A stretch of 64,000 bases of DNA from Ustilaginoidea virens (Eukaryota > Ascomycota > Sordariomycetes > Hypocreales > Clavicipitaceae): contig NC_057316.1 of NCBI RefSeq assembly GCF_000687475.1, forward strand, positions 7,402,041 through 7,466,040, written 5' to 3'. Shown in pieces: positions 7,813 through 38,498 of the stretch. Positions within the stretch are counted from its first letter, which is position 1. Each line of letters starts with the position of its first letter. Below the pieces are notes generated by a model that was not told the DNA's origin, did no database searches, and saw nothing but the letters and a program-made list of their open reading frames with translations. Both the position numbers and the translations under genes were made by a program.

Positions 7813-9552
7813 ATGCCCCGCCTTAAGAGGAGCTGCTAGGATAGCAGCCCGGAACCTATAGACCCTCCTTTAGAATGCGAACGCAAACGCGAATATAAAT
7901 GCGAACGCCTGACCAGGCTGCCTTACCCTGCCCTACGCTACGCCACTATATCAGTCTGCCTATTACCCGCCAACTCCCCCCCTAATACCGCCCCTGACGA
8001 TGCAACCCTTACCCCTTTTAGGGCTATAATATAGAGCCAACCGACCACCGCAGAGGCAGATAGCCAGCTAGAGGCCTAGGACGCATATGCTCCGGCAAGC
8101 CTGCTAGACCCGGCCAAAGACTACACGCAAATGCTGGGCCTAGTGCGGCAGCTTTTAGAAGCCACCCGCGCTATTAAAAGGTAGTTTATCTACCGCGGCC
8201 GCGATAAGGAGCTAGTGGCCGCGCTAATACTAGACTTAACCTATAACCACTTAAGTAGCCTCGCGTATACTATACGCCGGTTAGGGGCGCCAATCGGTAC
8301 TATTGATGCCCCCCCGCTATTCATCAGCCTCATATAGCTCTAATAGGGGGGCAAGCATATATAAGAAGACGCCTATCTAGATAAGCAGACCCTAATATAA
8401 GCCAACCTACTGCTCGCTATACTATACTGTAGGCCGGGTCCTAATCCCGACCCTACCTTACTCGACTAACTAGACGCGGCCTTTCTGCAGCACTTTATCG
8501 ACCCATAAGACCCAGACCTAATATAGTTTTAGCAACTAATGCTGCTTATATATATATTTTGCCTCCTTAAGCTACTCCCCCCTTAGCCTAGCTAGGACAA
8601 GGCAAGCATAGTAAAGGCCATCGCCACTATATTCTACTGCTGCTATACAGACCGTACTAACTAACATCGACTCTTTACCTATAGGCCCTTTAAGACCCTT
8701 ACCGGCTTATATGAGTAAAAGGCGACTGAAGAGGTAGAGATACTCAAGATAGCCAATTGGATCTATAAGGTAGAGGTAGCCCTCTAGAGCCTAGGAGACG
8801 TAAGCCTATGCCACCTACAAAAAACCTACTCCCAGCAGGCTATATTCGACACGCTTACCCATCTATATTTTAACGCTATCTACTATAAGCCCCGCAAGTC
8901 GAAACCTAAAGGCATAGGCACCTTAAAGTAGGACTAAGACGACGGCTTCTATACTAATAGTATCGCCATTATGCCGCCCCCCCACCGGGCGCTAATATAT
9001 AGGTATTTCCTCTTTTGCCGCTAGCCGCTGCCCTCTCCACCAATAATATCGCGGCTTCCGGCCCCTCCCCCGCTTTCTTACACAGGGATACCCTACTTAT
9101 ATAGGGGCAAGGACTATAGTAGCTAATCTACTATTTCCCCCTGCTAGGAACGCCCGTCGACCCTATTACAGGTAGTAGCGACCCTCCTACTAGTAGAGGC
9201 AGATAGCCTACTAAAGGCCCTTCGGACCTATAGGTCTTAACCCTATATAATAAGAGCGCTAAGCCCGATAATAGAAAAAAGGGAAGGGGGTAAGCTAAGG
9301 AGGATAAAGTATCGGGTAGTAGAATATAGCGCTAGACTCTAGTTATATAAGGTAGGTAGTAAGATAAAGGCCACTTATATTTATACGCAGTATGTATACG
9401 GCTACGGCTATAACCTTACGCTTATCGTATAGGGGGGGCAGCCCGGCTCGCAATAAGGGCCGCTAGGACCTATAGGTCCCAACCGGCCTACAGAAACCCT
9501 ATATATGCCTGCCTACCTTCCTAATAGAAGGTGGAAGGTGACTATTAGGTAA
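7813..9552 (+). pseudogene. Gene 2 copy A: about 580-codon RIP-inactivated gene, unknown
   Basis: The frame runs from ATG 7813 to TAA 9550-9552 with in-frame stops. The N-terminus is basic and Cys/Arg/Lys-rich, encoded by hexamer repeats (CERKRE type). The middle is Leu-rich and helical (for example LLEATRAIKRQFIYRGRDKE), and the C-terminal third is Pro-rich. Two copies of the GGACCTATAGGTCC palindrome, at 9224 and 9476, are crossed in frame as TYRS and GPIGPN. They may be in-frame insertions, or lie in an unrecognised intron or in the 3' UTR. A TAA at 9238 inside the first palindrome is absent from copy B. No domain recognised. Confidence 0.6.
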
Positions 9553-10158
9553 TAGTTACGTGTGTTGTCACATATATAATATATAAAACGCCCCCCCCCC
9601 ACTAGGCTAAGACGGCACGAATGCATTATAACGCGAAAAGTGGGTCGAGCCAGGCTATACCTTAGCATATCTTCCTATAGGAGAGTAGGCTTATGCGGAG
9701 CATTTGCCACCTACCTACCCTATTACGAGTTAACACCCGGCATATCGAGGCGAACCGCTAAACCCTCTCTTACCTTTGCCCCTAGGGGACCTGGCAGTAA
9801 GGCGCTAGATAATATAGATGCAGCAACGCACGATAGAGACTGCGCTAGGCCAGGCCTATAATACGGAGAGCCAGAGGCTATACGTCTAGTACAGTAGGTC
9901 CTAGCCAGCCAGCAGGGTAGAAAAAAGGTATTGCAGTATAGGTAGGTAAGCGCGGGTTCCACTCACTAATACCATTACCCGCCGCCTATACTACTACCAA
10001 TACTGCTCAAATAGGCAATATCTATTATAACTATATACCTAATAGCTCCCAGAAGGAGAATAGGGACGCATATATTACACCATTAAGACCTGTAAGTCCG
10101 AAAATTAATCATTATATAAGTCTGTTCTACCGCTCTATTGCCTTACCGCCTATAGGTC
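9553..10158 (+). other. Gene 2 to gene 3 interval with a small frame kept in both copies (A)
   Basis: Has a poly-C run near 9590 and a 73-codon frame at 9640-9861. The frame is also open in copy B and ends at the same place, with a GPGSKALDN block. An overlapping minus-strand frame (9723-9962) is not kept. It could be a decayed exon or chance. No family is recognised. Confidence 0.3.
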
Positions 10159-10260
10159 TATAAAACTTCTTCTTTTATGCTAACCTTTTCCTTTTCCTTT
10201 CTCTTCCTTATATCCTATAAATTAACCTTTTTTAGGACCTATAGGTTTAAGCCACCCTTC
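10159..10260 (+). promoter_or_regulatory. TATA box and CT-rich leader upstream of gene 3 (A)
   Basis: TATAAAA at 10159-10165 is followed at once by cttcttctttt and further pyrimidine-rich sequence. The same arrangement (TATAAAAA then cttcttctcttt) occurs at 17285, so both look like promoters of one style. A palindrome copy overlaps at about 10235. Distance to the gene 3 start is about 930 bp, so an upstream exon may exist. Confidence 0.35.
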
Positions 10261-10439
10261 CTAGATTACGCTTAGTCTTTTCGCACTATCTTAGAAGCAC
10301 CCGTCTATACTATAACGGCCGACTAATCGACTTAATTATCTCCCGTATTTTTTAACTTATTAGTTTTTTTATATACTATTAATTTGCTGTATAAAATAAA
10401 AGAACGAAAAAGAGGTAAAACTCTATATAGAAGAGGAGG

Positions 10440-11093
10440 GCTTAAGTTTAGACCTATAGGTCCAAACCGCCCTCTATGCGACCAACCTACTAACTAGCGA
10501 GCTAGATAGATTACGATAAGATAGTGCGTAAAACCCGCTAAAGCACTAAGAGGACTATAATTCGACTTATAAGATGCGCTTAGGAGTCGCTAAGCTAGTA
10601 AGACCAGCAGCAGCCTCTAAGGCAGCATATCGCGTAAATGCTACTAAGCGGGCAGGTCGATATATATACTACGCTAGTCTCGGAGGCAGATAACTATAAT
10701 AGTGCGCTATCCTAGTATATATAGCTCTTAGCTTAAGCGATAAAGGAGATAAAAGTGCCAGATAGTTAGGAAACTCCTAGTGATAGGCCATCGCATACTA
10801 TTAATACGCCATAATACGAAGGTAATATATTTAATAATAGCTTATAACCCGATATACCAACCCCTCGACTTTAAATAAGGCGTAGAGTTCCCAAGCCATT
10901 AGCCGTAATACTAGAGTAGGAAGACGAAGTATAGGAAAAAGACCAAAAAAAAGACCTATCGGAAAGGACCCCTATATAGCAAGTGCTAGCACGTAGAGGT
11001 AAGAAAGGAAAAAAGTAATAAAACAATAAAGCAGAATGTTCCCCTATAGCAGTAGACGACGAGGTAAATTAGCGCCGCGATATATACTAGCTT
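10440..11093 (+). other. Decayed stretch upstream of gene 3, possibly coding (A)
   Basis: A frame around 10570-10690 reads MRLGVAKLVRPAAASK and continues to a stop, and 10900-11060 is Lys/Arg-rich. Neither segment is open over the same span in copy B, and no splice link to gene 3 is obvious. A palindrome copy lies at 10450. Confidence 0.25.
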
Positions 11094-11421
11094 ATAACCA
11101 CTCTTATCAGCAATATATAGGCTCCTATTTCTATAATTACTGTGAATAAACCTAAAGAGAAGGAGGGTAAGGCCGAAAAGCTTAAGCGACTCCCGGCGGC
11201 TTATTTTAAGCAGTTTATAGAGTATAATATAGCGCCCTTCCTACCGCCGGCAGACTAAAAAGAGTAGTATCGGAGGGAGAGTATATAGCAGGCGTTTAGG
11301 TATATAGAGGGCCCGTATTTTCTAGAGAATAAGCCTAGTTTACAAATAAGAAATTATAATATTATATAGTATAACCATTTTAAGACGACGCTTAACCTTA
11401 AGTTATTTGCGGATGAGATTA

Positions 11422-11525
11422 GTACGTAATAACCCCGGCTGGGACCTATAGGTCCCACCCGCCTTCCTAGGGTTGCCCCCCCCCCCCCCCCTCCCCAAAC
11501 TACTAACTAACGCCTATATCCCTAG
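11422..11525 (+). other. Gene 3 intron 1 (A), with palindrome and poly-C
   Basis: The donor is GTACGT, the branch-like ACTAAC sits near 11503 and the acceptor is CCTAG at 11525. Splicing joins ATT-A to TT-CCG and brings exon 1 (frame 3) into exon 2 (frame 2). It carries the palindrome GGACCTATAGGTCC at 11452 and a long C run. Copy B has a GTATGT donor and is 1 nt shorter, the difference lying in poly-C. Confidence 0.7.
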
Positions 11526-13501
11526 TTCCGCGCATTATGCAACTATTAATACAGCTAGCTGGGTCCGGCCTAGACCATATAGAGCTTATTAAACTGATGT
11601 CGGAGGCGTAAAAAGCATAATATACTTCTGGTGGCTAAAAGGGACCTTTCGATAAGATGGTGAGGAAGCTATTTATATCGATATATCGAATTAAAGATAT
11701 AAAGGGTAAAGCTGCTAATAATAAACTTTTTGAGGTACTTAGTGCTATAGTTCGCCGCCTAGAAAACGCAGGGGTACGCCGGCTAATAGAGGCTATTATA
11801 AAGGACCTAAGAGCGCTATTTTTCCTGCCGATTACCGACGAGCTAGCGACTAGGCGCGACCTACTATCGCTAGTATTCGACTTTAACCTAATAGTAATAG
11901 GGTATGCGATACAGCTTCTTAAGTTTGCCCCTGCTAATATTAAAGAGTGGATAAAGGCTAGTCGCGTTTTAGGTAGGGAGGGCGATACTCCCTACTAATA
12001 CCGCTATTTAACACCTATACCTACCATTAGAATAGGAGAACTTAATATCCCTATTCGGAAGGAACCCCTATTTATAGGCATATACTTAGCAGAAGACATC
12101 GCATAAGCTTTTACGATTATTAGATATATTAATATACAGCGAAAGTCGATAAGTAGCTAAAAGGTGTATTAGATTAAGCACTATAAGGCCGTTGCACTAG
12201 TACTACCTACGAAATTCCTTGGCTATTATAACCCTAATAATAAGCCTATAACGAGTAGTAAGGATAGGGAAGAGTAAGAGCCTTTTCTTAATAGAAATAC
12301 TTCTTTAAGCCTTATTTATCGGTCTATAGTTTTAGCGCTAGGCGAGAAGTAGGATAAGATAGCTAAGCATCTGATAGGCGATAATAATAACGACAACGAC
12401 GATAATAATAATAACGAAAACAATAACGAGGATAATAATAATAATAATAATATTGGTAAGGATAATAGAAATGATACTAATAGTGGCAACGGGCCCGACG
12501 AGAGGCTAAAAGGTACTACTAGCGATTTCGACCCCCTTAGTATACTTTTCTCTAGTTCTTCTACCCTAATTAATCGTCTCATAAGGGCGAATAGAAAAGG
12601 CCTCCCCAAGGCTTATAATAGTCCAATAAAGGCCGAGTAGGTGTCCACACTCCGCGTACTGCAGCATAAGGCCGTAGACCTTAGTATTATTATCGCGCAG
12701 CGTATATCTATAATACAGCAAGAGAGGCGGAGCTTTACCGCAGTCTTTTATAGTGAGCACCTTAAGTCTTATATGCGGGAGGTTTCCACATATCTACATT
12801 ATATTGCAGCAACGCGCAAATCGCAGGCCCACGCTACTAAGGCCGGCAAGGCCCTAGATAAGATAAATAGCAGACTATAGGCCCTTCAATTGTAAGGCGC
12901 ATCAGCAGATAAGCTCTAAGCGTAGCATAATTTGCAAAGATAGGCGTTTACCCAAAATTTTTCGGTCGATAAGATGTACTATATATTATTCCTCCTAAAT
13001 GCGCATATCTAATCGTTCTAGCCACTAGAAATAGTAGATTTTAAAAGATTGCATCGATAGATAGCCCTTACCGCTAATTATAGACTATACGATATAGTCG
13101 GCATAGAGCCATTATTGCTATACTAGGTGGTAGACCTCGGCCGCATTATTGAAAAGTTAAAGAGGGGGGTTTCTATTGGCTTTAATCTCGATATAAGGCT
13201 AGGGAAGATAAAGATCGCGCTAGCTACTATTAAGGTAATAGCTCGCCGGACCGAGTTATATAATAAGTCTATCAAGTCCGGCGACGAGCCGCAACTATAT
13301 GCACCTATGCTATTTATCCTCTTAGTTAATATCCTAAAGCAGACTATTAAGGAAGTAAGCGCCTATAACCTAGGCTTCCGCCTTATTATCTTCTACGGTT
13401 CTAATAAGAAAAGCATTAGCAATACTAGCGTAAAGCTATTAGAGGTAGGGCGGTTTCACAAAGTGATGAAGCAGCTTATAGACGCTACTCATCTCCCCTA
13501 G

Positions 13502-13770
13502 GTAAGCAGATACTACTATCGGCTCTAGCACGCTATGGCGCTACTCTAGAGGGCATAGGACCTATAAGTCCGAACCTGGCTAGGGAGCTCGGGACCTGTA
13601 GTTCCTAACCAGTCCTATAGAAAGAGGAAGCAGCTATTGGCGCTGCTAGGCTATAGCGCCACTCTAGAGGACGTAGGACTTATAGGTCCCAACCTAGCTA
13701 GGGAGCTCGAGACCTATAGGTCCTAACTAATCCTATAGAAATATATCAATATTGCTAATATATAAGCCAG
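13502..13770 (+). other. Gene 3 intron 2 (A), built from palindrome pairs
   Basis: The donor GTAAGC follows a mutated CAG, the branch is GCTAAT near 13754, and the acceptor is CCAG at 13770. The 269-nt length is not a multiple of three and is exactly what moves frame 2 to frame 1. Inside are two tandem units of about 118 bp, each with two palindromes 32-33 bp apart (13559 and 13592; 13677 and 13710) plus a gctagggagctcg spacer. Confidence 0.75.
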
Positions 13771-15567
13771 ATAAGTAGGATAGTGATTTTTACTTTGTAT
13801 AATATATAGCGGGTCTGGATAGTTAGAATAACCTAAACGAGGTTTATATTTATTAAGAAAGATATAAATATTAAAGACGACCGAAAGATACTAGAGGCAG
13901 ACGATAACGATAATTTAGATAGTAAGCTTTTAGATCGTAAGGAAAATAAGGAGGATAAGGATAAAAAAGAGGAGGAGTAGGAGGAGGATAAAGAGGAAGA
14001 TAATATAGAAGATTAGGCGCGCGCAAGCACCCCTTATACCCCCTATACCCCCTATAAACGCAAGCGTTATAGCGATAATGCATTTGCATTAATACCAAAA
14101 AAACGGCGCTATGGTATTTACTGCACCTTAATAGAGAACGAGCTATAGCAGAGGATGCAAAATATTAGCGAGGAGATAGAGAAGAAGAAGAAAAAGGATA
14201 TAAACTAGAAGTATACTACCTATTACGTAAAGATAGAACTTAGCTACTGTAAGATTTATACTATTAGTAAAGAAAGTAATAAGGACCTAGACGGCAACCT
14301 AATTAATTATAAGTAGCGGGATGAGAGTTCCGCTTTATACTCGTTTAAGCTTTTTATACTTAATAAGGCGCATATTGCCTGTAACTTTCAGAAGAGTTAT
14401 AATCGCTATCTCAGTCTTATTAAGCGCGAGTATAGCATCTAGATTACCGGTATATTAATTATATCTGGCAATAAGGATATTATTGGATTCGCATGCTTTC
14501 TCTTTAAGTATATACCTATCGATAGAGTATAGCTCGCCGACTTTCTCTTCGCCGCTATCGACTGCCAGAGCCTTACCGCGCTTTAGAGTAGTAAATACGA
14601 TCCCTACTCTAGGCAATTGCCTGGCAATATCGATATTAGGGATAGGATCACAGCCAAAGAAAAAGGCCGCATTATTGGCATTCTATATGACGATTTCGCG
14701 CTTAACGACAATATTAAGACGGTACTGCAGTAGTACTACGATAATAGTATACATCTATAGCAGGTCTGCCCGCACCTTATACTAGCTATAGGAAGGATAA
14801 TTAGGTGGGAGTTCACGTTTAGTAACAGTATAACATCTGCACTAAAAAACAATTTTTGCATATTTCGCTTGGCAAGGGCTATTATTAATAGCCCCGATAG
14901 ACACAGCATCATATTTCCTGGAATCGACCTCCCGCTACAAACGGTACACTACAAAGAAGTGAACTACAGCATTTTGCATAAAAAGTTGGTTAAGACGTAT
15001 AGCGAGGAGTCGGCCTTATCGTCCTTTACCCCCCTATCCTAAGGCATAGATAATATTATTACGACGGCTATAGCTAGTAATAGGCTGCAGGCAACCGGTA
15101 ATATCGAGAAACCGCCTAATAGGAACTTTAGCTCGCAGCGCGCCGGTAATATAATTGCTTTCGACGCCAGATTTAAAAGAGTTTTAGAATATAATTTATA
15201 TAAAAAGATAATAAAGCGCAAAGAGGCCGTCGCCTAGGTATTATATGAGATTTCCTATAAAGGCATTAAACTTACCGACACTAAGATCGAGCGGATTCAG
15301 AAAGAGACCAATAAAGGTAGGGTTATTACCTTTAGTACTAATAGCTATCGGGACCTTATAAGGTCTGACCTCTATTACGGTCTTAGCACCTTCTTCTTAA
15401 TAACGAACCTAGAGCCAGGATAGTATAGACTATCTATATCGTTAGACTAGCTGTAGTACCTAGCGCACGGCAGCCCGGTTATTAACCGCGTGATCTAGCT
15501 TATCTACCTCTATATCATCTAGGGCAAGGAGAGGCTGCTAATATTTTATGATTTACCGGTTCTGCAG

Positions 15568-15684
15568 ATATAAGCTCCAAGCCAGCTATAGCCCCTTAAG
15601 ACCTATAGGTCTAAAAAGGTCCTCACTTCGGACCTATAGGTCTGAACCGGTGACTATAACTAACCAACCATATAACTACCTAGG
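15568..15684 (+). repeat. 117-nt palindrome-bearing insert in gene 3, in frame (A)
   Basis: Lies between the IFYDLP and YLYGTVLL segments of the C-terminal helicase lobe, where the family normally has a shorter linker. It holds two palindromes, at about 15599 and 15631. The length is a multiple of three and the frame is kept. A donor would need an extra G (CAG then ATATAAG) and the acceptor is unclear, so this is either a third intron with a lost donor or an in-frame insertion. Confidence 0.5.
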
Positions 15685-16593
15685 TACCTCTACGGCACTG
15701 TCCTACTTTGCGGGGTTCAGGCCTTTACAGCGCGTAGTACTAATAAGGGCTCTGAAAAGCAAGCAGCATTAGATGCCTTCCTTAACCCGAAGATAGGCCC
15801 ATACGTTTTTATTACTAATATATCGATTATAGGCACTGGCGTCAACCTATAGCGATAATACTATAAGGGTATCTTTATTAATTTCCACTCGAATGCATAA
15901 ATCATCCGGTAGGCATAAGCCAGGCTATATCGAATAGGACAGCTTCGGCATATTATTTGGTATATCATTAAAGTCGTAGACTCGTACTAAGACTATATAG
16001 AGCACGGTATACTTAAACGATGGACCATATAGCTTTAGGCCGATATGAAAGTACCGTCTTAGGCAGACGGTATTATTAAGGAAACCTTAGTATATAAACT
16101 ATAGAGGCAGTATTTCGGTTATTCCTTTAATAGAATGGCATAGCAGATTATTAAGGACACCTCGCAGAAGGAGTTCAAGCCGAATGCCAAGTCTACACGC
16201 AAGTTAGGTTACATACTTTTATGCCTTATGAAGCTTATCTATACTATCCCTCCCGAGGATACTAAAAAGACGATATTTTTCAATAACAATATGCATAATA
16301 TTTTAACATCCATATATACCATCTATCGGTCAAATACATACAATATACCTACCGTCCGAAGGTAGTATATAATATCTGCAGAGGAGATGTCGCCTATTAT
16401 GTGGGAGGAGGCGAAGAAAGCCCAGCACGCGGCTAAATCTCGCAGTAAGAGCGAAGAATAAACGCAAATCCTACATAGGTTATGTGAGTATAGTAAGGAA
16501 CTATTGGTAGGACGGGTGGATAAGGTGGAGAGTAAGTATCGAGATATACCGATTGATAGCAAAGAAGGAGAGGATAAGGACCTAGACGAATAA

Positions 16594-22365: not shown

Positions 22366-23907
22366 ATATATAGCAATATTATTCTCTTAGCTTATAGTAT
22401 TATAGTAATTGCCTATAATTACGATAATTTAATATTAAATATTAATAAAAGCCTTTTTTTTATCTTTAAAAAAATAGGTAGAAAAGTAGGATAAATAAAA
22501 TAGATAAAATAGGTAAAATAAATAAAAAAGAATAATAATAGGAAAGAATAATAATTTAGCCTTAATTAAAGAAAATCTAATAGAATAAAAAATCTAAATA
22601 AATCTAAAAGGCTAAATAATCTTAAGTAAATAATTTTAGGTAAAAGTGATTAATCTAAATAGTTAATCTAATTAATCTAATTATAATATACTATATTTAT
22701 AGTATTTTAGCTTTAATAATTAAAAATTACTTACCACCTTTTTAAATTAGAAAAAATATTTCGCATAAGTAAATATATTAGTATTATTATATTCTTTTAA
22801 ACTATATTTTATATTAATAATTTATATAGTAGTATAAATACCCTAATAGAACTTTTGCATAAAGGTAATTTCTTTATTAAAAAGAATATTTAATTATAGA
22901 AAATTATCTAATAAAATAGTAATAATATAATAAAAGGTATATAAATAAGTAGTTAGTATACCTAGTATATAGCAAAAGTTAAAATAAAGCAATAGAATTA
23001 TAATATAAAAATATATAATTATATAGATTTATATACTATTTATTAGGGTTAGGTAGGGTTAATAATAGTATTAGCATAAAGGTATAAGAAATATAATAGT
23101 AAAAAAAATTAATATTATATAGAATATATAATTATACTTTTGCAACTAAAGTATAGCTATATATAGCTAGCTAAAGTCAGTATATAGCTATTTATTTATA
23201 TAATAAAAAAGAGAAGTACTTAGTAATTTATTAGACTAATTAATAATTTATTAGTATATAGCTAGTAATAAATATATATAAATAATAGTCTAAAAGAAAT
23301 CAATAAAATAAAATAAATAAAATAAAGTAATTTACTAAATATAAACTATACTTATAATTATTAAATAGTTTTCGTATATTAAAGTAATATAGTATATAAA
23401 AGATAAAAGTAGTAAAATAATAAAATTGCTATAAAGTAATAATATAGATAAGATATAAGATTAAAGTATAAAAATAATTTAATATTTACTTATATATATA
23501 TATATTTCTTTACTTTTCTTTTTATTATTTAGGTAGGAATATCTAAAGATTTAAATATATAATAGTTTAATATAAAATATCCCTAGTAAAATTAATCTAA
23601 TATAAATATTATAATTTTAATATAATATTATAGATATATAGCGAAATATGCATTTATAGTATATTAAAATTAGTAATAATAAAATAGTATAATTAATTTA
23701 TAATATATTATATATTTATATATAAGGGAATATATATAAGTACTAAATACTTAACTTAATTAATAGCTATTATATAAATATAAATACTAAATACTTAATA
23801 CCTTTTTTAATCTAATAATATAGCAATATATAAAGATTATTAGCAATAGATATCTAAAAAATAATAAAATAGATAATAATAATTAATTTTATTATAATAT
23901 ATAAACC
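22366..23907. other. Very AT-rich, gene-free tail (A)
   Basis: No reading frame, RNA gene or clear repeat unit apart from a short TTAGGG-like island at 23043. The composition is what saturated RIP leaves behind. Confidence 0.7.
23043..23062 (+). repeat. Short interstitial telomere-like island (A)
   Basis: TTAGGGTTAGGTAGGGTTAA within AT-rich DNA, same orientation as the chromosome end. Its TAGG variant unit resembles the inner telomere tract at 63884. Confidence 0.55.
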
Positions 23908-24120
23908 CTATTCTAATCCTATATTAACCCTTTAGAAACCCTATTTTAACCCTATAAAAACCCTATAGAAACCCTATATATTGACCCTATACTAACCCTA
24001 TAATAACTTTATAATAACCCTATAGAAACCCTATATAAACCCTAGATTAACTTTATAGTAACCTTATATTAACCCTATAGAAATCCTATATTAACCCTAT
24101 ATTAACCCTTTAGAAACCTA
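23908..24120 (-). repeat. Degenerate CCCTA array, reverse of the end telomere (A)
   Basis: Units of about 10-12 bp such as aaccctatag, aaccctatat and aaccctttag recur some 18 times. The C-rich strand is on the plus strand, opposite to the terminal TTAGGG tract. It may be a decayed telomeric array or a telomere-like minisatellite. Confidence 0.6.
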
Positions 24121-26530: not shown

Positions 26531-26537
26531 TCCTAAA

Positions 26538-27147: not shown

Positions 27148-27982
27148 ACTACTTCAGACCTACAGGTCCCAACTATACTATTGATTTAGTAGAAGTAAGA
27201 TATATCTTCTTTATTCATTTATTATTTCCCTTTATATTACTTATCTCTTCGGACCTGCAGGTCCTAATAAGGCTTATATACCTACCTCTTCGGACCTGCA
27301 GGTCCTAGTAAGGCTTATATACCTACCTCTTCGGACCTATAGGTCCCAGTAAGGCTTGCATACTTATTTATTCGGACCTATAGGTCCCAATAGGCTTCTA
27401 TCTATACTAGGCGAAGCAGTAATAAGGAGGAAAAGGGCAGATAGCGCTACATCTAACAATATAGCCTTTTTATATATGCGTGCCGCAGTTATATATGCGT
27501 GCTGCGGTTATATAGGCAGCTGTAGCCGTACCGCGGCCTTATATGCTATATACCTAGTTAGATGCGCTAAATAATTGGCTGATTAACCGACTGATTAATA
27601 ATTCTAATAGCGTTATTACCTTACTTCTTACTATTTACTACCTTATGACCTTCTTCTTTACTAGCTTTATTCCCAATCTCTTTATATACTACCTTTTATA
27701 TTAATATTCTCCTTCTTCTTTTTTACCCTTACTCTTTTTTTTCTTTTTTATTTTTACTCTCCTTTTTCTTTTTTACTTTTACTTTCTTCCTTTTTTTTTA
27801 TATATTACTCTCTTCCTTCTTTTTTATACTTTACTCTCTTCCTTCTTTCTTATATATTACTTTTTTCCTTTTTTTTTATATTTTACTCTTTTCCTTCTTT
27901 CTTATATTTTACTCTCTTCCTTCTTTCTTATACTTTACTCTCCTCCTTATAGGATATAATTTAAGCTTATATGCATATTATT
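27148..27982. repeat. Palindrome-array module 1 with pyrimidine tract
   Basis: GGACCTGCAGGTCC-type palindromes at 27251, 27292, 27333 and 27374 form a 41-bp tandem, with one more near 27152. Then comes a block starting aggcttctatctatactagg, several tgccgcagttata repeats and a long C/T-rich tract (27640-27950) ending aggatataattt. The two central palindromes still have the unmutated CTGCAG. Confidence 0.85.
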
Positions 27983-28665
27983 CAGACCTATAGGTCCCAA
28001 TAGGGCTTGCATACTTATTTATTTAGACCTATAGGTCCCAATAGGGCTTGCAACTTATTTATTCAGACCTGTAGGTCCTAATAGGCCTTATATGCTTATT
28101 TATTTAGACCTATAGGACCTATAGGGCTTGTATGCTTATTTATTTAGACCTATAGGTCCTATAGGGCTTGTATGCTTATTTATTCAGACCTATAGGTCTT
28201 AATAGGCTTCTATCTATACTAGGCGAAGCGGGAAAAAGGAGGAAAAGGGCGGATAGTACTATATCTAACGATATAGCCTTTATATATATATATGCGGCAG
28301 TTATATATACGTGCCGCAGTTACGTATGCATGCCGCAGATATAAATACGTATTAGGGTCACGTGAGCAGCCGCTGCTATAACGCGGCTATATATGCCATA
28401 TACCTATATACCTATTAGGTACGCTTATTACTTCCTATAATTTACTGCTACCTTACGACCTTCTTTTTTACCAGCTTAATTTATAGCCTTTTTATCTACT
28501 ACCTGCTATACTTATACTCCCTTTTTTCTTCCTTACCTTTATTCTTTTCTTTTATTTTTACTTTTATCTTTCTTCCTTTTTTTTACTCTTTTCTATCTTT
28601 TTTTCCTTTATTCTCATCCTTCTTTCTTACCCTCTACTTTCTTCCCTTTAGGATATAATTTCCCT
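27983..28665. repeat. Palindrome-array module 2 with pyrimidine tract
   Basis: Tandem copy of module 1. Six palindromes between 27985 and 28200 are spaced about 38-41 bp, followed by the same aggcttctatctatactagg block, cgtgccgcagtta repeats, a C/T-rich tract and a closing aggatataattt. Confidence 0.85.
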
Positions 28666-28876
28666 ACTCTATCGCCGGATTATAATACCTATATTATTAT
28701 ATTAATGCCTCGGCCCTATAAATATTTTCATAAGGTTAGTAATATCATAAGTGGGTATAAAGAATTCCTTAAAAATAACTTAGCTAATATAGAGCTATAG
28801 GATCGTTATCCTGGCAAAATGCCAGTTTATACATCGCTATATAAGCAACGGCTCGCCCGGTCTAATATTATATTAT

Positions 28877-29135
28877 CCTGGCAAAATGCCAGTTCGCATA
28901 TCCCTATATAAGGATTAGCTCGGCCTATCCACTACCATATTATCCTTAACGAGATAGGGGTACCTATTAATAAGCTGCAGAAAATGATTTATTAGCAATA
29001 TTACTTATACGTAAGATCGACCACGCCTATATCGCTACACCCAGGCTTTTACTATACTTACCTTATAGGATAGGCAGCAAAAGCGCATGAGAATATCGCT
29101 ACTAGCGAAGGATTCTATATTAGCGGCAAAATGCC
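28877..29135 (+). pseudogene. Argonaute PIWI-domain fragment, copy 1
   Basis: Reads SSHIPI-stop-GLARPIHYH, then IILNEIGVPINKLQKMIY, a tract ending RSTTPISLHPG, and FYYTYLIG. This matches the C-terminal end of eukaryotic PIWI domains: IQG-x-x-RP-x-HYH, LQ, Y-x-R-x-T, then P-x-x-YYAHL. In active Argonautes the His of YYAHL completes the catalytic DEDH set; here it reads Tyr, a C-to-T change. It is followed by a KAHENIATSEGF tail and a ggcaaaatgcc motif. No MID, PAZ or upstream PIWI sequence was recognised next to it. Confidence 0.8.
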
Positions 29136-29149
29136 AATTATTAGTCATC

Positions 29150-29295
29150 ATACATAAGCAGTATTACTCGTACGCGAGATTAACCACGCCTATATCGCTA
29201 CATCCGGCCGTCTACTATACCCACCTTACACGATAGTAAGTAAAAGCGCATAAGAATATCGCTACTAGCAAAAGATTTTATATTAGCGGGAAACC
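29150..29295 (+). pseudogene. Argonaute PIWI-domain fragment, copy 2 (partial)
   Basis: Starts inside the LQK-MIYQQ region and reads YYSYARLTTPISLHPAVYY, then THLTRQ. The YYAHL histidine is kept (codon 29222-29224). It ends with the KNIATSK tail and an agcgggaaaccgct variant of the closing motif. No frame upstream. Confidence 0.75.
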
Positions 29296-29304
29296 GCTAA
29301 TGCC

Positions 29305-29388
29305 TATCTACTACTATATAGTTAATCTTACGTACGAGTAATATTGCTGATAGTAGTAGAATACGGCCGGGTGCAGCCATATAGGCGT
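29305..29388 (-). pseudogene. Argonaute PIWI fragments in reverse orientation
   Basis: The reverse complement of 29313-29348 matches the agcaatattactcgtacg segment, and that of 29350-29388 matches the acgcct-atat-gc-cacccggccgt segment of copies 1-3. Their order is swapped relative to a simple inversion. Together with copy 2 they could fold as an imperfect hairpin. Confidence 0.6.
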
Positions 29389-29590
29389 TATCCTGGACGA
29401 GATGGGGGTGCTTATAATTAAGCTGCAAAAGATGATATACCAGTAATATTATTTATACGCAAGATCGACTACGCCTGTATTACTACATCCGGCCGTCTAC
29501 TACGCCTACTTTACTAGATAGTAAGCAAAAGCGCATAAAAATATCGCGACTAGCAAAGGAGTATAGATTAGCGGTAAAATACGTATGCTA
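29385..29590 (+). pseudogene. Argonaute PIWI-domain fragment, copy 3
   Basis: Reads VILDEMGVLIIKLQKMIYQ, RSTTPVLLHPAVYYAYF and the KNIATSKG tail. The catalytic His position again reads Tyr. It ends with agcggtaaaatacg. Confidence 0.78.
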
Positions 29591-29599
29591 TTTTCGGCG

Positions 29600-30130
29600 A
29601 TAACGAAAAGATATTTAGTTATAAAGACTTAAGGATTATATTGTAATACCGAGCAAATAATATAAGACTATATGTGGAAATTATTTATAGTAAGAAGTTG
29701 AAACCGCCGATTAGTATTGACGAGCCTACGGATATTAATACTCTGCTTTAAGAGGGAAACTATCTGCCTAAAAGTAGGCTGCCCCCGTCTTTGCTATATA
29801 GCATACGCTAACTAGGTCTAGTTGCCTTTATAAAAGGTTCTGACTTTAAAAATAGCGCTTAATAACTCGGCGATAACTAGACACCTCTTAGCACTCTTTA
29901 CGAAACTATTAAGGGACTAAATAGAAAATATAAAGTCTGGAAGGGTAGCTTGGCTGACCCTATAGTTTTATAGCTGAATATATATATCTAAATCTTAATT
30001 CCTCTTTTTATCGAGGGCGGTTTCTATATTAGCTAGGACCCTAATTTAGACTCGCCTACGCTAGATTTATCCGATATAGACCGTTAGACTGTTTTTTTCC
30101 TATATTATACATAAAAGTCGATTGATAAAC
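29600..30130 (+). pseudogene. Decayed frame of unknown family leading into PIWI copy 4
   Basis: One frame from about 29616 reads GDNEKIFSYKDLRIIL, later LKPPISIDEPTDINTLL and SPTLDLSDIDRQTVFF, with scattered TAA/TAG codons. It may be continuous with the PIWI fragment at 30140, in which case it could be more of the same protein, but I do not recognise PAZ, MID or the upstream PIWI motifs in it. Confidence 0.45.
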
Positions 30131-30139
30131 CGGAGAAGA

Positions 30140-30375
30140 CTAATTCGCGTATCGCTATATAAGGAATATATCGGCCTATATACTACCACGTTATCCTAGA
30201 CGAGATTAGGATGCCTTTTAATAACCTATAGAAAATAATATATTAATAATCTTATTTATACGCAAGATCGATATCGCCTATATGGCTATACCCGGCCTTT
30301 TACTATACGTACCTTATAGTATAGCGAATAAGAGCGTAGGTATTCTTTAACGAGGTAAAGGATATATATAGGGAA
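30140..30375 (+). pseudogene. Argonaute PIWI-domain fragment, copy 4
   Basis: Reads NSRIAI-stop-GIYRPIYYH, VILDEIRMPFNNL, then YARSISPIWLYPAFYYTYL, and a longer C-terminal tail (VFFNEVKDIYREISITK). This is the fullest single copy. The HYH site reads YYH and the catalytic His is Tyr. Confidence 0.8.
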
Positions 30376-30689
30376 ATATCTATTACTAAATAAATTAATA
30401 AAGATAATAATAAACTAGTCCCGGATAGCGATAATAGACGAGGCCAAGTAGAGTTAGCAATACCTGCTCGGCTGCATTTAGAGCTAATTAGCGGGACTAT
30501 CTATATAGTCCTCAGCCTTATCGGGAGGGGCTTAGTATAATAAGCAAAGACTGGGGATTAATCTAATAGATTTCTTGCATATTTATACGAATATAAGCTA
30601 TTATCACTAGGCTCTTTTTTCCAGGTTATTAGGATATTATTCCTATAAGCGACACCATAAGAACCAGATATATTAACTTTATTTACGGT
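30376..30689 (+). other. Unrecognised RIP-mutated sequence between PIWI copies
   Basis: Weakly coding-like (for example LELISGTIYIVLSLIGRG near 30480-30535) but broken. No family recognised. Confidence 0.3.
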
Positions 30690-30910
30690 TGTGGAGAGAA
30701 AGACCTAAGAATATCGCAACTAGCGAAAGATTCTATATTGGCGGCAAAATGCTAACTCTTGATAATTATATATCAGCACTATTACTTATACGCTAGATCG
30801 GCCACTCCTCTATCGCTATACCCGCCTATTTTCTACATATACCTTACCAAATAGCAAGCAAAAGCGCATAAGAATATCGCAACTAGCAAAGGATTCTAGC
30901 TTAGCGGCAA
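30690..30910 (+). pseudogene. Argonaute PIWI-domain fragment, copy 5 (partial)
   Basis: Between two agcgaaagattctata/gcaaaggattctag tails it reads HYYLYARSATPLSLYPP, FYIYL and AKAHKNIATSKGF. Ends with an agcggcaaaatacc motif. Confidence 0.7.
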
Positions 30911-31835: not shown

Positions 31836-31935
31836 TAGTAATATTACTCGTACGCGAGATCGACTACGCCTGTATCGCTGTATCTAGCCGTCTACTATGC
31901 CTACCTTGCTAGATAGCAAGCAAAAGCGCTAATTC
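31836..31935 (+). pseudogene. Argonaute PIWI-domain fragment, copy 6 (partial)
   Basis: Reads YYSYARSTTPVSLYLAVYY then AYLARQQAKA. It is cut off after AKA and joins unrelated sequence. Confidence 0.72.
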
Positions 31936-32560: not shown

Positions 32561-32567
32561 GACTATC

Positions 32568-33345
32568 GCAATAAGGCTATTTTAGGCCTAGTTAATCGTC
32601 TTTCCAAAAAGATGGCTTAACCGTCGCAATAAGGCTATTTCGGGCCTGGTCAATCCGCAATAATGACGAGCAGATATTGAAAAAAATTTTGCAGACTTAA
32701 AGTTATCGGAGGACCCATACCTAAAAATATATAGCGTCGTTCCAGAAAGAGGGCTTTATATAAGCCATTCTAATATACTAACCATCGCAATAAGGCTATT
32801 TCGGGCCTGGTTAATCCGCAATAACGACGAGCAGATATTGAAAATAATATTGCGGACTTAAAGTTGTCGGAGGACCCATACCTGAAAATATATAGCGTCG
32901 TTCCAGAAAGAGGGCTTTATATAAGCCATTCTAACATACTGACTATCGCAATAAGGCTATTTCGGGCCTAGTTAATCCGTAATAACGACGAGCAGATATT
33001 GAAAATAATATTGCGGACTTGAAGTTGTCGGAGGACCCGTACCTGAAAATATATAGCGTCTTTCCGGAAAGAGGGCTTTATATAAGCCATTCTAATATAC
33101 TGACTATCGCAATAAGGCTATTTCGGGCCTAATCAATCCGCAATAACGACGAGCAGATATTGAAAATAATATTGCAGACTTAAAGTTGTCGAAGGACCTA
33201 TACCTGAAAATATACGGCGTCGGTCCGGAAAAAGGGCTTTATATAAGCTATTCTAACGTACTAACCGTTGCAATAAGGCTATTTCGGGCCTGGTTAATAG
33301 GCTTTCTAGGAAGAGGGCTTTATATAAGCCACTCTAAGGTCCGTT
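32568..33345. repeat. 161-bp tandem array, about 4.5 units
   Basis: The gcaataaggctat landmark recurs at 32626, 32787, 32948, 33109 and 33270 (161-bp steps), with a short extra copy at 32568. Units contain cgacgagcagatattgaaaa and agagggctttatataagcc. 161 is not a multiple of three, so it is not a protein repeat. Confidence 0.92.
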
Positions 33346-33789
33346 ACAACTAAAATAGAAATAGGAAATATAGCAGAGGCAGAGGATATAAAAGCAGAGG
33401 CATTTAATAATAAGGATTTATATAAGCATAATTAATAAGATAATAAGCAATAAAAGAAGGGAGATAAGGTTATAAATGTATAATACTCCTACTAGGCATT
33501 AGCTTATAGTTAGCGGCATTAGCTCTTAGTCGGCATTAATAAGCATAGGTTTAGTGCATATATTTAAATTCGGGATGTATATGAAGCCGATGATGTGTGT
33601 GTTTTATATGGTGGGACCATAAGCCTTGGTGGGGCACCTATTGGTGACACATACATACCGCGGGCTGCTGTAAGTCAGGTGATAGGCGGCCACCTGACCT
33701 AAGCATATGCAGCGAGTCGATTCCGCCACTATATATCGGTGCATCCTCGCACGTAGGAACCATTCTATACTGGCACTATTGGTGCCATA
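33346..33789. other. Less mutated spacer, no gene seen
   Basis: From about 33540 the sequence keeps many CA and TG dinucleotides (for example tggtggggcacctattggtg), so RIP is light. No reading frame or repeat unit recognised. Confidence 0.5.
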
Positions 33790-34108
33790 TTAAGGGGTAC
33801 CTATTTATATATAGGGTCGCGCGTGTGGTATAATATACCCATTAATCACGAAGCAAAGGTATTCTATTATTTTGCTAATAACTATCTAAGAAAGTAGGAA
33901 AGAGGCAAAAGAGAGGAATTACATAATATAGCCTCGGTTATGCGCGTGCTATAGTCACGTGCCTTAGCGCGGTCGGGCCGGGCTGCCCGCGTGCCCTACT
34001 AGGCATAGGGGGTAAACGGGCAAAAGTGGCTATATCGTGCGCAGCGGCGCGCGGCATATCTATCGCAGTATGTGCCCAATTGGGCACCTTACGATAGCGA
34101 TTCCAACA
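33790..34108 (-). repeat. LTR-like element, least mutated member
   Basis: On the minus strand it begins TGTTGGAATCGCTATCG at 34108, has a near-palindromic centre with GTGCCCAATTGGGCAC (34070-34085) inside tatcg...cgata arms, then cttttgcccg, gggcagcccggcc and a ctatatataaataggtacccc end. Five other members in the window share these landmarks in RIP-mutated form. The TGTTGG start would suit an LTR; no internal retroelement genes are attached. Confidence 0.65.
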
Positions 34109-34970
34109 GGCATAGTTATTATAGCTAGGCTAATGCAACTACCGATTCCAATATTCTGTTTCCAGCAAGGTAGATATCGTTTAGTATACCTAATTATATC
34201 AGGCCTTTATATATAGCGCGCTATATATCGCCGCGCTACGCCGAGCACCGCCGCTATATCCGCATCCTCGTCGTGCAGTAGATGGCTCGCTTATTCCTAC
34301 TGCTCTCCCTCTTCGAAGCATGTATATAGGTTAGGTAGCTAGGGCACTCGTATATACTATATTGCTGAGATATATGGTAATGCCCGATCGCGGCCCTTGA
34401 CCTCTCACCGGCCTCTTTCCCTTGGATAAGGCACCTACCTACGTGCGTAGGGCAGCGTAGCCATGTAGGTAACCCTCCTATATGCATAGACCAGGTGAAG
34501 CTTCGGACCTGCAGGTTTGAACTGGCCACCTAGTGCCGCCCCCATTAGCAGCGCCCGTCCCATCGGCTATATAACCAGTCTTAGCCTAGCCGGTCTTATC
34601 CTAGCCGACCTTTCAATATACCACCCTAGTAATAGTAGCTCACCTATAAAGCCTAAAGTGGGTTTTAGTAGGGGCTGGTAGACTTGGCCTTAGAGTTATC
34701 GTAGGAGGGGATAAAGCCTGCCGCCTATCCCCGACTAACCACTCCTCCCTTATAGCTGCCTCTACGGACTAACCGAGCGAAGGTTGCCTAGTATATAGGC
34801 CAGTATAGGCCTGTCTAGACCTGCACGTCCGAACCAGCCTCCCAGCGTCGCGTGTGCTAATATAGCCTAGAGCAAGCAATGCACTACGGAGATACTACAC
34901 TACCGTATAGGGTTCCTATATTCGCGAACGACCGTATGCTCTTCGTGTGTAGGCTCGCTTAGGCCTATTC
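34109..34970. other. Less mutated intergenic DNA with two palindrome copies
   Basis: Palindromes lie at 34505 (GGACCTGCAGGTTT) and about 34820 (agacctgcacgtcc), both with the CTGCA core unmutated. A small minus frame at 34254-34529 crosses the first. No gene supported. Confidence 0.5.
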
Positions 34971-35460
34971 GGACCTGTAGGTCCTAACCGGCTACGCACG
35001 CCACCGGGTCCCAACACAGCCTATGTTATAGAATCTACTATGGACGCACTATGATATATGGCTTGTGTCGGCCCACGACCGCGGTAACCTTCGGCATAGG
35101 CTAGCATATGCTAGCACAGACCTGTTCGGACCTGCAGGTCCCAACCGGCTACGCAGGCCACCAGATCCCAATATAACCTATATTATGGAATCTACTATGG
35201 ATGCACCATGATATATGGCTTGTGTCGGCCCACGACTGCGGTAACCTTCGGCATAGGCCAGTATATACTAGCGTAGACCTGTTCGGACCTATAGGTCCCA
35301 ACCGGCCACACAGGCCACCAGATCCTAATATAACCCATGTCATGGAATCTACTATAGACGCACTATGATATATGGCTTATATCGGCCTACGACTGCGGTA
35401 ACCTTCGGCATAGGCCAGCATATGCTAGCGCAGACCTATTCGGACCTATAGGTCCCAACC
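34971..35460. repeat. 157-bp tandem array with palindrome core
   Basis: Palindromes at 34971, 35128, 35285 and 35442 are exactly 157 bp apart. Units hold aatctactatg, atatatggctt, cggtaaccttcggcatagg and a gacctgttcgg join. The palindrome at 35128 keeps GGACCTGCAGGTCC, while those at 35285 and 35442 read GGACCTATAGGTCC, so RIP can be seen within one array. Confidence 0.93.
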
Positions 35461-35898
35461 GGCCCCTCAGACTACTATACATATGGAAGTCATAAGCACT
35501 AGAGTGTATAAGTAATGGGCAGAGGATGACGCGCGAGCCCTAATAAGATAGCCTATATACTAGTAGGCATAGTGGTGCGGCTCTACTGGTGCGGCTCTAC
35601 TACTATAAGTCCTGCAGTAGGGCTAGCAACTCCTAGTGCGGGGAAAAGCGGGGTATGCCTTATAATTCAGTGCGCCGACTTACCTAATACTCTTGAGTTA
35701 CTACAGAATCATATAGGAACTGCTATCGTAGCTTGTTTACTTTTATTATAGATAATGGAGAATTATACATACACAATCTGACTATATTTCATCTTAATAC
35801 CTACTTTTTTTTTTTTTTTTTTCCTATAAATTCGTTCTTCCTTTTTCTTCCTTCCTTTCTTTTTTCTTCCCCCTTTATCCCTCCTTTTTTCTTTTTTA
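35461..35898. other. Intergenic, poly-T and CT-rich leader
   Basis: An 18-20 base T run near 35804 is followed by a C/T-rich stretch up to 35895, directly before ATG 35899. It may be the promoter or leader of the next pseudogene. Confidence 0.4.
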
Positions 35899-36945
35899 TG
35901 CCAACAACCAAAATGGATATAATAGCTTAACCTACCTCGGCTGCAGATACTATAAAATACGGTATAGAGAAAGAGTTGATTATCCCTATAGTATTATTTA
36001 GCGCATTCGACGAGCTATTTACGAACCTTTATGCGTTAACCTATAGGAGGATCACTAGTAGACTAGACGCTTAAACCCATCTGCCCGATAGGCTTACCGA
36101 TAAAACCATCCAAATAGAAGACCAGGACGCTCTCGTGTAAGTATCGCCCGCGCAGCCATACTATAACTATACATACAACAGATTTATCTCTAGGTTCCTA
36201 TACTGCACTAGTATATAAGACGGTAGCTCCTGCGATCAGTATTTACTCTATAGCCGCTACTGCCTCAAAAAGAGTGAATTAATTATACGCCAGGAGATAT
36301 TAGCCGGCAAATACCTCACGCTCCTCAATATAATACGTAATAGAACCAGCCTTTAGAAGCTAATCGATAGTGCCGCCGCCCGCCCGCCTAGCACCAACGA
36401 AATATTAATAATAACGATAACGCTAGCGTTCTAGTCTATAGTAGCTATATTCCTCCGATACTTCGCGATGGCCAAAAGACGCTTACGAACGCTATATATC
36501 GAGGCGATAGAGTTCAAAAAGGCTATATACTAGAAGCATTTTTTGCATATTATAAACCCTTCCATATACCGTCCCTATCCAGCCTATTAGGATTTTAAAA
36601 GGGATATCGCCGAGTCTTTTTACTAGTAGCATTAGGAGTGCTTTAGCCGACCACACCCTATATAATCACTCCGCTATATCCCTCCCCCCCCCGGCAGTAT
36701 CGCTTCTTCCCGCACCAGCAGTATCGCATCCCCCCCCCCCTTACCCACCAATAGCATACTCTACAATATAGATAAGGATTAGGAATTCATAAAAATGGGC
36801 ACTAGCACCTATTCTAGCGCCTATAACAACGGCGACGCAAAAGATGCCGCATACGATAACTGTAGCAATAGCTATTTTGAAGATAGATTCTACTTCGAAG
36901 ATAATATCATATTATAGGAGTATAATTTAACTTATGAGTATTAAT
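35899..36945 (+). pseudogene. Decayed gene of unknown family, about 350 codons
   Basis: From ATG 35899 (MPTTKMDIIA then a stop) the frame can be read with relatively few RIP-type stops. Segments include FSAFDELFTNLYALTYRRIT, RQEILAGKYLTLLNIIRN and RYFAMAKRRLRTLYIEAIEF, then a Pro-rich region with poly-C at about 36680-36740 where the frame becomes uncertain. Helical and basic in the middle; no motif recognised. A CT-rich leader precedes it. Confidence 0.5.
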
Positions 36946-37452
36946 GATACGAATATACGCCGCTAGGCGCGCAGCAGTAGGAGGTGATTTGCTTTTTTTA
37001 TTTTTATTAACTACTAATGGGAAACATAAGGTAGCGTTTTATTTTATTTTTTTCGTTTTTAGCTAATACCAGGGGGGGGGGGCTATATTACTCGGCATAT
37101 AACTCAGGTGCATTCGCAGGCATTTTGCTTTACATTTTATCGAACGACTATAGGGGGATATATTTTTACTTAGCATGGCATTACGTTAGACGCAAACACA
37201 CAGCATAGATAGATGCATACCTATATAGCTAACCACAAATTGAGAGTATGTCACTATATATATGCGCCGTAATACGATAAGCTATACGGGCGGTAGGGTA
37301 GTTCAGACCTGCAGGTCCCAACCGGGCCGTATAGTCGCACTATAGCATCGCCCCCCAACCTACCAAGGTTACATATATATGCCATAGTGACTACTATATA
37401 AGCAGCGTGGCCCAACCCACGTGCCTAATTACGTTCTAACGGGGAGGGGGGT
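36946..37452. other. No gene seen; poly-G run and one palindrome
   Basis: A G run is at about 37070-37082. The palindrome agacctgcaggtccc, with its core intact, is at 37304. Confidence 0.45.
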
Positions 37453-37966
37453 ATTAGATATCGGAAACCTAGGTTAATCCAAAACCTCAGTCTAATATAA
37501 TTCCGACCCGATAATCCTCTTCTCCCTCTTCCCCAGTAGGCTCTATATAGTAGTTCATCATCGTATATAAGAATAAGATATATCAATCATTACGACTTAA
37601 CCGGGGGGGCATAGTAGTCAGAGTCTTCTAGTAACGTAGAGAACGCCTACCGATACATATAGTCTCTACGACCACCTACTCTATAAAGACCTATATACCA
37701 ACCTCCCTAACAGTAAAGCTTGCCAGCTTTATTCCAAGCTGCCAGAATACAGAGGGGGGCATCGCAGCAGATAGCACCTTATAATAGTACATAGCGCGTG
37801 GCATTATAAATACTTTCTATAGAACCTATAGCGCTATAGCCCTATATCTCGCCTTTATATCTACTCTTACCCTTCTTATCCCTTCTAGTCAGTCAGTAGT
37901 ATAGAAATACCATTAGAGTATTGCTTATCACTATAGTCTATAGAGAAGGTACTATTACTATTTCAT
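37453..37966 (+). mobile_element. Possible degenerate solo LTR
   Basis: Starts tattagatatcggaaacc (TG lost if RIP-mutated), contains a tatataagaataag promoter-like site near 37574, and ends near ttactatttca. No target-site duplication could be confirmed and no internal retroelement sequence follows. Weak call. Confidence 0.25.
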
Positions 37967-38498
37967 AGGATCTATATATTGTAGATAATAAAGCACAATA
38001 GAATGGCGATAAAGTAGGCGAGCAGGAGAACCGGCTTAGACTTATAGGTCCGAACCAAAACCACCCGCGATTTACAGCTATGCACCTAACCTTATCGCAC
38101 GTGCTTGCCTATTTAGCAGCGGAAGCGAGGCCTATTAAAGCAGAGAATTAATGCATTTCCTGCCTTCACTTTCCCTTTACCTTCCTTTTGCCTTCCTACC
38201 TTTACTTTCCCTTTACCTTTACTCCTATTCCCTTAATTTCTTTCTCCTATATAAAGCCTTAACTTCTCCCTCCCTTCTTCCTTTCTTTCCCCCTTATTAT
38301 AACTCACACTCTTTTTTTCTTATCCTACTGCTTGCCCTGCCTTTTTCTCTCTTTTCCTCTTTTATATAAGCAAGCCTTGGTATATCCCGCCCTTCTTCCT
38401 TTTTATCCTCTTTATAATACTATTTCCCCGCCAGCGACTAGTATTTCACATATTATATACCGCCACACTTTATCCCGCCTACAACCACGGCCTAAAGT
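37967..38498. other. No gene seen; CT-rich run and one palindrome
   Basis: A palindrome variant, gacttataggtccgaacc, is at 38039, with one extended arm kept. Between 38150 and 38370 C/T-rich sequence creates a Phe/Leu/Ser frame that I do not regard as coding. It may be the leader of the next frame. Confidence 0.45.

What the first reader, a model, noticed from the sequence alone, without database searches (positions are those of the whole stretch)
9224..38055. Dispersed GGACCTGCAGGTCC palindrome family in introns, reading frames and array cores
A 14-bp perfect palindrome recurs dozens of times across the window. Some copies extend to arms matching TTCGGACCTGCAGGTCCGAA (inferred consensus). 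Unmutated copies keep CTGCAG (27251, 27292, 35128, 37304). Most read CTATAG, which is what RIP of CpA on both strands gives. The placement is unusual: two phase-consistent introns of the SNF2 gene (11422-11525 and 13502-13770), a 117-nt in-frame insert in the same gene, two in-frame sites in gene 2, and the repeat core of the 41-bp and 157-bp arrays. It behaves like a tiny mobile or amplifying nuclear palindrome, similar in style to mitochondrial GC clusters or Rickettsia palindromic elements, which are analogies only.
Basis: partly seen in the sequence, partly recalled or inferred. Interest (0 to 1): 0.78.

Follow-up and report, generated by a model that had tools for sequence, protein, structure and literature searches.

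The report
Dispersed short palindromes in fungal subtelomeres
Near the chromosome ends of the rice false-smut fungus, a tiny mirror-image DNA sequence turns up at some seventeen to nineteen unrelated places, including every recognised intron of a now-dead helicase-like gene, and was then multiplied and mutated together with the DNA around it; whether it ever jumped by itself is unproven.

Summary
The window is the right end of chromosome 1 of Ustilaginoidea virens UV-8b. A 14-mer scan (3 mismatches) finds 37 copies against 0.4 expected; a RIP-tolerant scan finds 44 rows (43 places). The genome has 162 exact GGACCTRYAGGTCC; in three complete listings all copies lie within 170 kb of a chromosome end, except one on C3.

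Most copies come from amplification of two large units (about 15 and 24 kb) whose copies differ almost only by RIP. One A+B unit holds 32 copies at 17-19 independent sites with unrelated flanks. The consensus is a longer palindrome, GGTTN-GGACCTGCAGGTCC-NAACC, with a free base beside the core in each arm and no clear target duplication.

A spliced-looking, un-RIPped protein confirms introns 2 and 3 (1340 codons, no gap).

No single-copy site varies in presence among paralogous units, so mobility is not shown. Best reading: a short palindromic insertion family that colonised an ancestral subtelomeric segment, was amplified with it and now seems inert. A dimeric protein-binding site is the main rival.

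The parts
7477..7490 (.). degraded outlying copy (flanking arms match, core partly changed)
9224..9237 (.). palindrome copy upstream of SNF2-like gene
9466..9479 (.). palindrome copy upstream of SNF2-like gene
10086..10099 (.). palindrome copy upstream of SNF2-like gene
10235..10248 (.). palindrome copy upstream of SNF2-like gene
10450..10463 (.). palindrome copy just upstream of a possible start codon of the SNF2-like gene (start not confirmed)
11422..11525 (+). intron 1 of SNF2-like pseudogene, with palindrome at 11442; splice-site consensus only, outside P0121
13502..13770 (+). intron 2, two 118-bp repeats with palindromes at 13558, 13592, 13676, 13710
11657..16059 (+). part of the SNF2-like pseudogene covered by protein P0121; 4020 nt of exon without a palindrome, introns 2 and 3 between
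27156..27169 (.). palindrome copy
27232..27401 (.). 41-bp tandem array with palindromes at 27251, 27292, 27333, 27374
27965..28213 (.). 40-bp tandem array with palindromes at 27984, 28025, 28065, 28106, 28146, 28186; lies in DNA paralogous to the 27232 array (72.6%)
34505..34518 (.). palindrome copy, central CpA intact
34817..34830 (.). palindrome copy with one transversion in the core
34964..35463 (.). 157-bp tandem array with palindromes at 34971, 35128, 35285, 35442
37305..37318 (.). palindrome copy in a near-perfect longer palindrome
38038..38051 (.). palindrome copy; its fuller arm is on the minus strand
47167..55344 (.). second unit copy: homologues of the 7477 site and of the 12 sites 9224-15630 are present

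Best explanation
This is a family of short palindromic insertions (core GGACCTGCAGGTCC, weaker arms reaching about 32 bp in all) that settled at 17-19 independent places of one ancestral subtelomeric segment of U. virens. Its SNF2-like gene was presumably still under selection then, so only copies outside its coding sequence survived. Small tandem duplications multiplied some copies (41-, 40-, 118- and 157-bp arrays). The segment was then duplicated along and between chromosome ends as A (about 15 kb) and B (about 24 kb) units, and RIP altered most centres (162 of 190), mostly CTGCAG to CTATAG. Shown: the family, its independent contexts, intron placement, unit amplification, RIP, and presence in all paralogous copies examined. 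Inferred: that each site arose by insertion and not by convergence, and the order of events. The pattern TTN-core-NAA, with a free base on each side of the core and a weak symmetric preference outside, would fit insertion of the core into targets like GGTTN^NAACC without target duplication. The copying enzyme is unknown.
For: Far above chance. In one 39.7-kb unit 32 copies score at least 20 against 0.67 expected, and counts stay at 32 for thresholds 17 to 21, so the family is discrete. Information in 34 arms is near zero from position 18 on, so flanks are unrelated. The base beside the core is free (G16 C8 T7 A3) between positions with 27 of 34 C and 32 of 34 A. All 16 half-site hits in the unit lie in palindromes. 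In the SNF2-like gene all 7 copies (3 of 3 recognised introns, 5 of 5 independent events) are intronic; post hoc p about 7e-4 by intron and 5e-6 by event, with exon lengths that include an unconfirmed exon 1 and an intron-3 end 2 nt short. The introns share no long similarity beyond the palindrome; other matches are 8 bp. Window 1-24173 and 39692-63887 differ at 2041 sites, 2036 of them transitions.
Against: No presence/absence difference among unit copies at single-copy sites. No clear target duplication: the best of 672 offset and length combinations gave 35% identity against 21% for exchanged flanks, not tested for significance. No empty site found in the DNA held. A free base next to an invariant core, and information that fades gradually outward, are not expected if 25-32 bp are simply copied by descent. 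Copies are confined to chromosome ends except one at C3:909404, odd for an element that spreads in trans. No enzyme identified.
Confidence: 0.5

Rival explanations
1. The palindrome is the recognition site of a symmetric (dimeric) DNA-binding protein that acts on subtelomeres, for instance in chromatin, replication or recombination. Sites arose or were kept by selection in non-coding DNA while the unit was single-copy; the free base in each arm is an uncontacted position.
For: Symmetric logo with one free base at the mirror position of each arm and information fading outward; two sites 31 and 34 bp apart in introns 3 and 2; only intronic placement inside the gene; confinement to chromosome ends.
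Against: Most centres are RIP-altered now (TATA at 122 of 190), so the sites are not being maintained. A 14-bp core with few transversions is long for a binding motif. Only one copy is listed in the chromosome interior.
Confidence: 0.27
2. The whole A/B segment came from another genome or a giant mobile element in which such palindromes are common in all non-coding DNA; U. virens received them ready-made and no insertion took place here.
For: Confinement to the A/B units; the SNF2-like protein P0121 found no relative but itself.
Against: No donor is known: no exact match in prokaryote genomes or viral contigs, and no eukaryotic DNA collection could be searched. The search scored only candidates sharing short exact words. 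The unit also carries Piwi and HAT1 pieces.
Confidence: 0.12
3. The palindromes act as RNA hairpins in introns and untranslated regions.
For: Core forms a short hairpin in most predicted folds; copies in all three recognised introns.
Against: No support for outer pairing with exchanged flanks: p 0.11 and 0.13 to 0.83. No Rfam match. Bases beside the core do not pair consistently.
Confidence: 0.05
4. All copies are mere by-products of tandem and segmental duplication of a single palindrome.
For: Arrays and unit amplification explain most copies. The 27232 and 27965 arrays lie in paralogous DNA.
Against: Some 17 sites in one unit have unrelated flanks.
Confidence: 0.04

Closest known systems
Yeast mitochondrial GC clusters (GC42 family)
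   Same: Short, GC-rich, dispersed, hairpin-capable repeats, some in tandem arrays (title of a cited reference seen)
   Different: The commonest clusters are flanked by AG or ACT direct repeats and are absent at some homologous positions (PMC4478555, passages read). Here: nuclear, no clear duplication, no presence/absence variation among paralogues
Volvox carteri short palindromic repeats
   Same: Palindromes in intergenic and intronic non-coding DNA; judged selfish
   Different: They fill organelle genomes, average about 50 nt in the passage on plastid copies, and their nuclear copies are judged inert transfers (PMC2670323, abstract and passages). Here no copy is listed on C8, presumably the mitochondrial contig
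Neurospora mitochondrial PstI palindromes
   Same: GC-rich palindromes containing CTGCAG (recalled, not looked up)
   Different: Different sequence and compartment (recalled)
Fungal introners and sister stwintrons
   Same: Repeated sequences found in introns (search listing and abstract starts only)
   Different: There whole introns are similar; here three introns share only the palindrome and most copies are outside introns

Membership tests
Mobile short palindromic element (GC-cluster type) | dispersed near-identical short palindrome with unrelated flanks | tested here: met
Mobile short palindromic element (GC-cluster type) | target-site duplication at the ends | tested here: not met
   No clear signal over 672 combinations at 17 sites, no formal test
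Mobile short palindromic element (GC-cluster type) | presence/absence polymorphism among paralogous units | tested here: not met
   Palindrome present in every homologous copy at single-copy sites; only array copy number varies
Mobile short palindromic element (GC-cluster type) | presence/absence polymorphism between strains | not testable with these tools
   No DNA of other strains held
Introner element | introns share sequence over their length | tested here: not met
   Apart from palindrome matches, the three introns share only 8-bp matches at E <= 1
MITE or TIR DNA transposon relic | terminal inverted repeats around an internal sequence, with target duplication | tested here: not met
   Arms meet at the centre, no internal sequence, no clear duplication
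Dimeric protein-binding site | symmetric half-sites with position-specific constraint | tested here: met
   34-arm logo
Dimeric protein-binding site | sequence-specific binding by a protein | not testable with these tools
   Needs gel shift or DAP-seq
Structured RNA family | match to a known family or pairing beyond the core | tested here: not met
   No Rfam match at gathering score; pairing with exchanged flanks p 0.11 to 0.83

The most novel reading that the evidence does not exclude
A nuclear selfish palindrome with a core of about 14 bp that inserts without target duplication at GGTTN^NAACC-like sites and is confined to chromosome ends, where it seeded introns, upstream regions and tandem arrays of a fungal subtelomere before RIP overtook it. 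It would be among the smallest mobile sequences known in a nucleus.
Probability: 0.25. Interest if true: 0.8.

Novelty: new variant of a known kind. Interest (0 to 1): 0.5.

Why it matters
From what I read and recall, short mobile palindromes are documented mainly in organelles and bacteria. A nuclear family of this size, whose only surviving positions inside a gene are its introns, would be a test case for how such tiny sequences spread and for what subtelomeres tolerate. If it is instead a binding site, it points to an undescribed sequence-specific factor of fungal chromosome ends. Either way it corrects the annotation: the tested 'in-frame' palindromes are in an intron of a RIP-damaged gene, not in coding sequence.

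Tried and rejected
1. Orientation bias. The asymmetric pattern gave 100 of 100 hits in one orientation relative to the telomere. This is confounded: the hits are copies of the same oriented units and the pattern picks one arm. Comparing the outer arm on both strands at 17 independent sites gives 9 plus, 3 minus, 5 ties, so the claim is dropped.

2. Outer stems or RNA structure: p 0.11 and 0.13, 0.46, 0.83, 0.60 for four flank lengths. No Rfam match, no tRNA.

3. Target duplication: no clear signal. Empty sites: 3 junction-spanning hits, two weak (75 and 78% over under 50 bp) and one to the site's own tandem copy.

4. Organelle origin: no hit listed on C8 (98,050 bases by subtraction, presumably mitochondrial, not checked). 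Prokaryote or virus: no exact match to the 24-base pattern or the 20-base pattern, intact sequence only.

5. Introner: not met. Two of three LTR-like insertions on C2R lie within about 15 bp of a palindrome, one of them inside a dense array; taken as chance, not tested. Clustering of sites under 350 bp: p 0.03, under 50 bp: p 0.15, rough null.

6. A first check of intron 3 used a wrong exon-4 start, so its 1215 aligned residues covered intron 2 only; redone.

7. Rows dropped from the 17-site logo: 27984 (array rows misaligned) and 7477 (degraded core). Counting independent sites as 19 treats the 27232 and 27965 arrays as separate, although they lie in paralogous DNA; hence 17-19.

8. The list was cut at its first places; statements on location rest on the complete lists. 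Pfam searches of 17 read-through frames found only Piwi and HAT1; the RIP-damaged SNF2 frames themselves gave no Pfam hit, the SNF2 label rests on P0121.
Full report
Where this is. The window is the last 64 kb of contig C1 (7,466,040 bases) and ends in TTAGGG-type repeats. A 1267-residue Swr1 fragment from the same genome is 100% identical to a U. virens protein, and the lengths of C1 and C2 equal those of UV-8b chromosomes NC_057316.1 and NC_057317.1 in a table of PMC13233505 (passages read). So this is the right end of chromosome 1 of Ustilaginoidea virens UV-8b.

The observation. The palindrome is far above chance: 37 matches within 3 mismatches against 0.42 expected, and 44 rows (43 places, two rows overlapping) for the RIP-tolerant form. 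Genome-wide there are 162 exact GGACCTRYAGGTCC with 0 for the reversed control, 33 of them intact. The listings (33 sites; 100 rows; 96 rows, some sites on both strands) are complete; in them every hit lies within 170 kb of a chromosome end except one 2-mismatch copy at C3:909404. The C4 copy is 1.8 kb from that chromosome's end (lengths).

Why there are so many. The subtelomeres contain two large units, A (about 15 kb) and B (about 24 kb). Unit matches on the arms examined are all in one orientation; the three minus-strand pairings listed over 1.5 kb are more diverged (69-84%). In the window, 1-24173 matches 39692-63887 with 2041 differences, 2036 of them transitions and 5 transversions; of the C>T changes 880 are before A, 470 in unresolved context, 334 before G, 324 before T and 28 before C. 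The copies are therefore young apart from RIP, and most palindrome copies were made by this amplification and by tandem arrays.

Independent sites. One A+B unit holds 32 copies at 17-19 sites or array founders with unrelated flanks. For 17 of them I built a RIP-aware consensus from 3 to 6 unit copies each (27984 and 7477 dropped). Treating each half separately, 34 arms read YAGGTCC-N-AA-C, with a weaker cGgcc beyond; the base N is free (G16, C8, T7, A3), information fades outward and is near zero from position 18 on. All 16 hits to the half-site in the unit lie in palindromes, 0.15 expected on the plus strand. The score scan shows a discrete family: 32 copies at every threshold from 17 to 21, against 0.67 expected at 20.

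Placement. The SNF2-like gene is a RIP-damaged pseudogene. A read-through of exons 3 and 4 found one relative, P0121, 1340 residues, from a source labelled 'lgn' (by recall, Logan assemblies of public reads), on contigs of up to 5607 bases. With introns 13502-13770 and 15570-15683 removed, all 1340 residues align without a gap: 997 identical, 342 explained by C-to-T or G-to-A changes, 1 other. P0121 is thus an un-RIPped product of the same gene read across both introns, most simply from a transcript (inference). Intron 1 (11422-11525) has good donor, branch and acceptor sequences but lies outside P0121. All 7 intragenic palindromes are in these introns and none is in the 4020 nt of confirmed exon. 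Post hoc p is about 7e-4 by intron and 5e-6 by event, with slightly wrong lengths and an unconfirmed exon 1. Apart from the palindrome the introns share only 8-bp matches. Period-3 signal suggests more coding DNA at about 1.1-6.5 kb, also free of palindromes, although tandem repeats inflate that measure. I found no support for in-frame sites in a 'gene 2'.

Mobility. For 190 sites in 253 kb I looked for both flanks together elsewhere. At single-copy sites every homologous place holds the palindrome; only arrays vary, for example 2 against 4 copies of the 118-mer. There was no clear target duplication and no empty site. Among paralogues of one strain the sites are therefore fixed.

How it may work. 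The free base at the mirror position of each arm, between an invariant core and a conserved AA(CC), is awkward for copying by descent of a 25-32 bp element. Two readings fit: insertion of the 14-bp core between the two central bases of targets like GGTTN^NAACC, or a dimeric protein's binding site with an uncontacted base. The discrete family, unrelated flanks and absence from exons favour insertion. Confinement to chromosome ends, the symmetry and the gradual fading favour a site. I put insertion at 0.5 and binding site at 0.27.

Rejected. An apparent orientation bias (100 of 100 rows) disappeared when both arms were compared at independent sites (9 plus, 3 minus, 5 ties). Pairing beyond the core was not supported.

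Known relatives. The commonest GC clusters of yeast mitochondria have AG or ACT repeats at their ends and are absent at some homologous positions (PMC4478555, passages). Volvox palindromes fill organelle genomes and are judged inert in the nucleus (PMC2670323, abstract and passages). A text search for the 14-mer found 0 papers; listings for U. virens with subtelomeres, RIP, palindromes or telomeres showed no title or abstract start that reports this family. That is no proof that none exists.

Limits. From then on, every genome fetch and genome search failed as busy, so the internal C3 copy and the C4, C6 and C7 arms were not read. The interior of the genome was searched only with fixed patterns.

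Noticed in passing
window 11657-16059 and protein P0121: An un-RIPped version of the subtelomeric SNF2-like protein exists in a public sequence set, yet a search of 5.8 billion proteins (7992 word-sharing candidates scored) returned only itself. Its SNF2 domain is divergent (Pfam 1.7e-9).
   Followed up: partly
window 28366-30762: A read-through frame matches the Piwi domain (1.1e-21) and the HAT1 N-terminus (6.2e-23), suggesting that argonaute and HAT1 gene pieces lie in the subtelomeric A unit. A search for the chromosomal HAT1 gene did not complete.
   Followed up: no
window 1-24173 against 39692-63887: Two 24-kb copies differ by 2036 transitions and 5 transversions with 27 gap columns, a clean natural record of RIP.
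   Followed up: partly
window 23898-24109 and 63601-63823: (TATATTAACCC)n array at the distal end of each B unit; the second copy is followed by the telomere repeats.
   Followed up: no
C2 right arm, loci L017-L020: Three insertions with TG...CA ends and 5-bp target duplications, LTR-retrotransposon-like, interrupt the units; two lie within about 15 bp of a palindrome.
   Followed up: partly
window 995-2705: Tandem arrays with periods 96, 87, 129 and 45 (multiples of three) in a region of strong period-3 signal, perhaps a repeat-rich protein gene.
   Followed up: no
G000:C3:909404-909427: The only palindrome copy far from a chromosome end in the complete listings; its flanks could not be fetched.
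   Followed up: no
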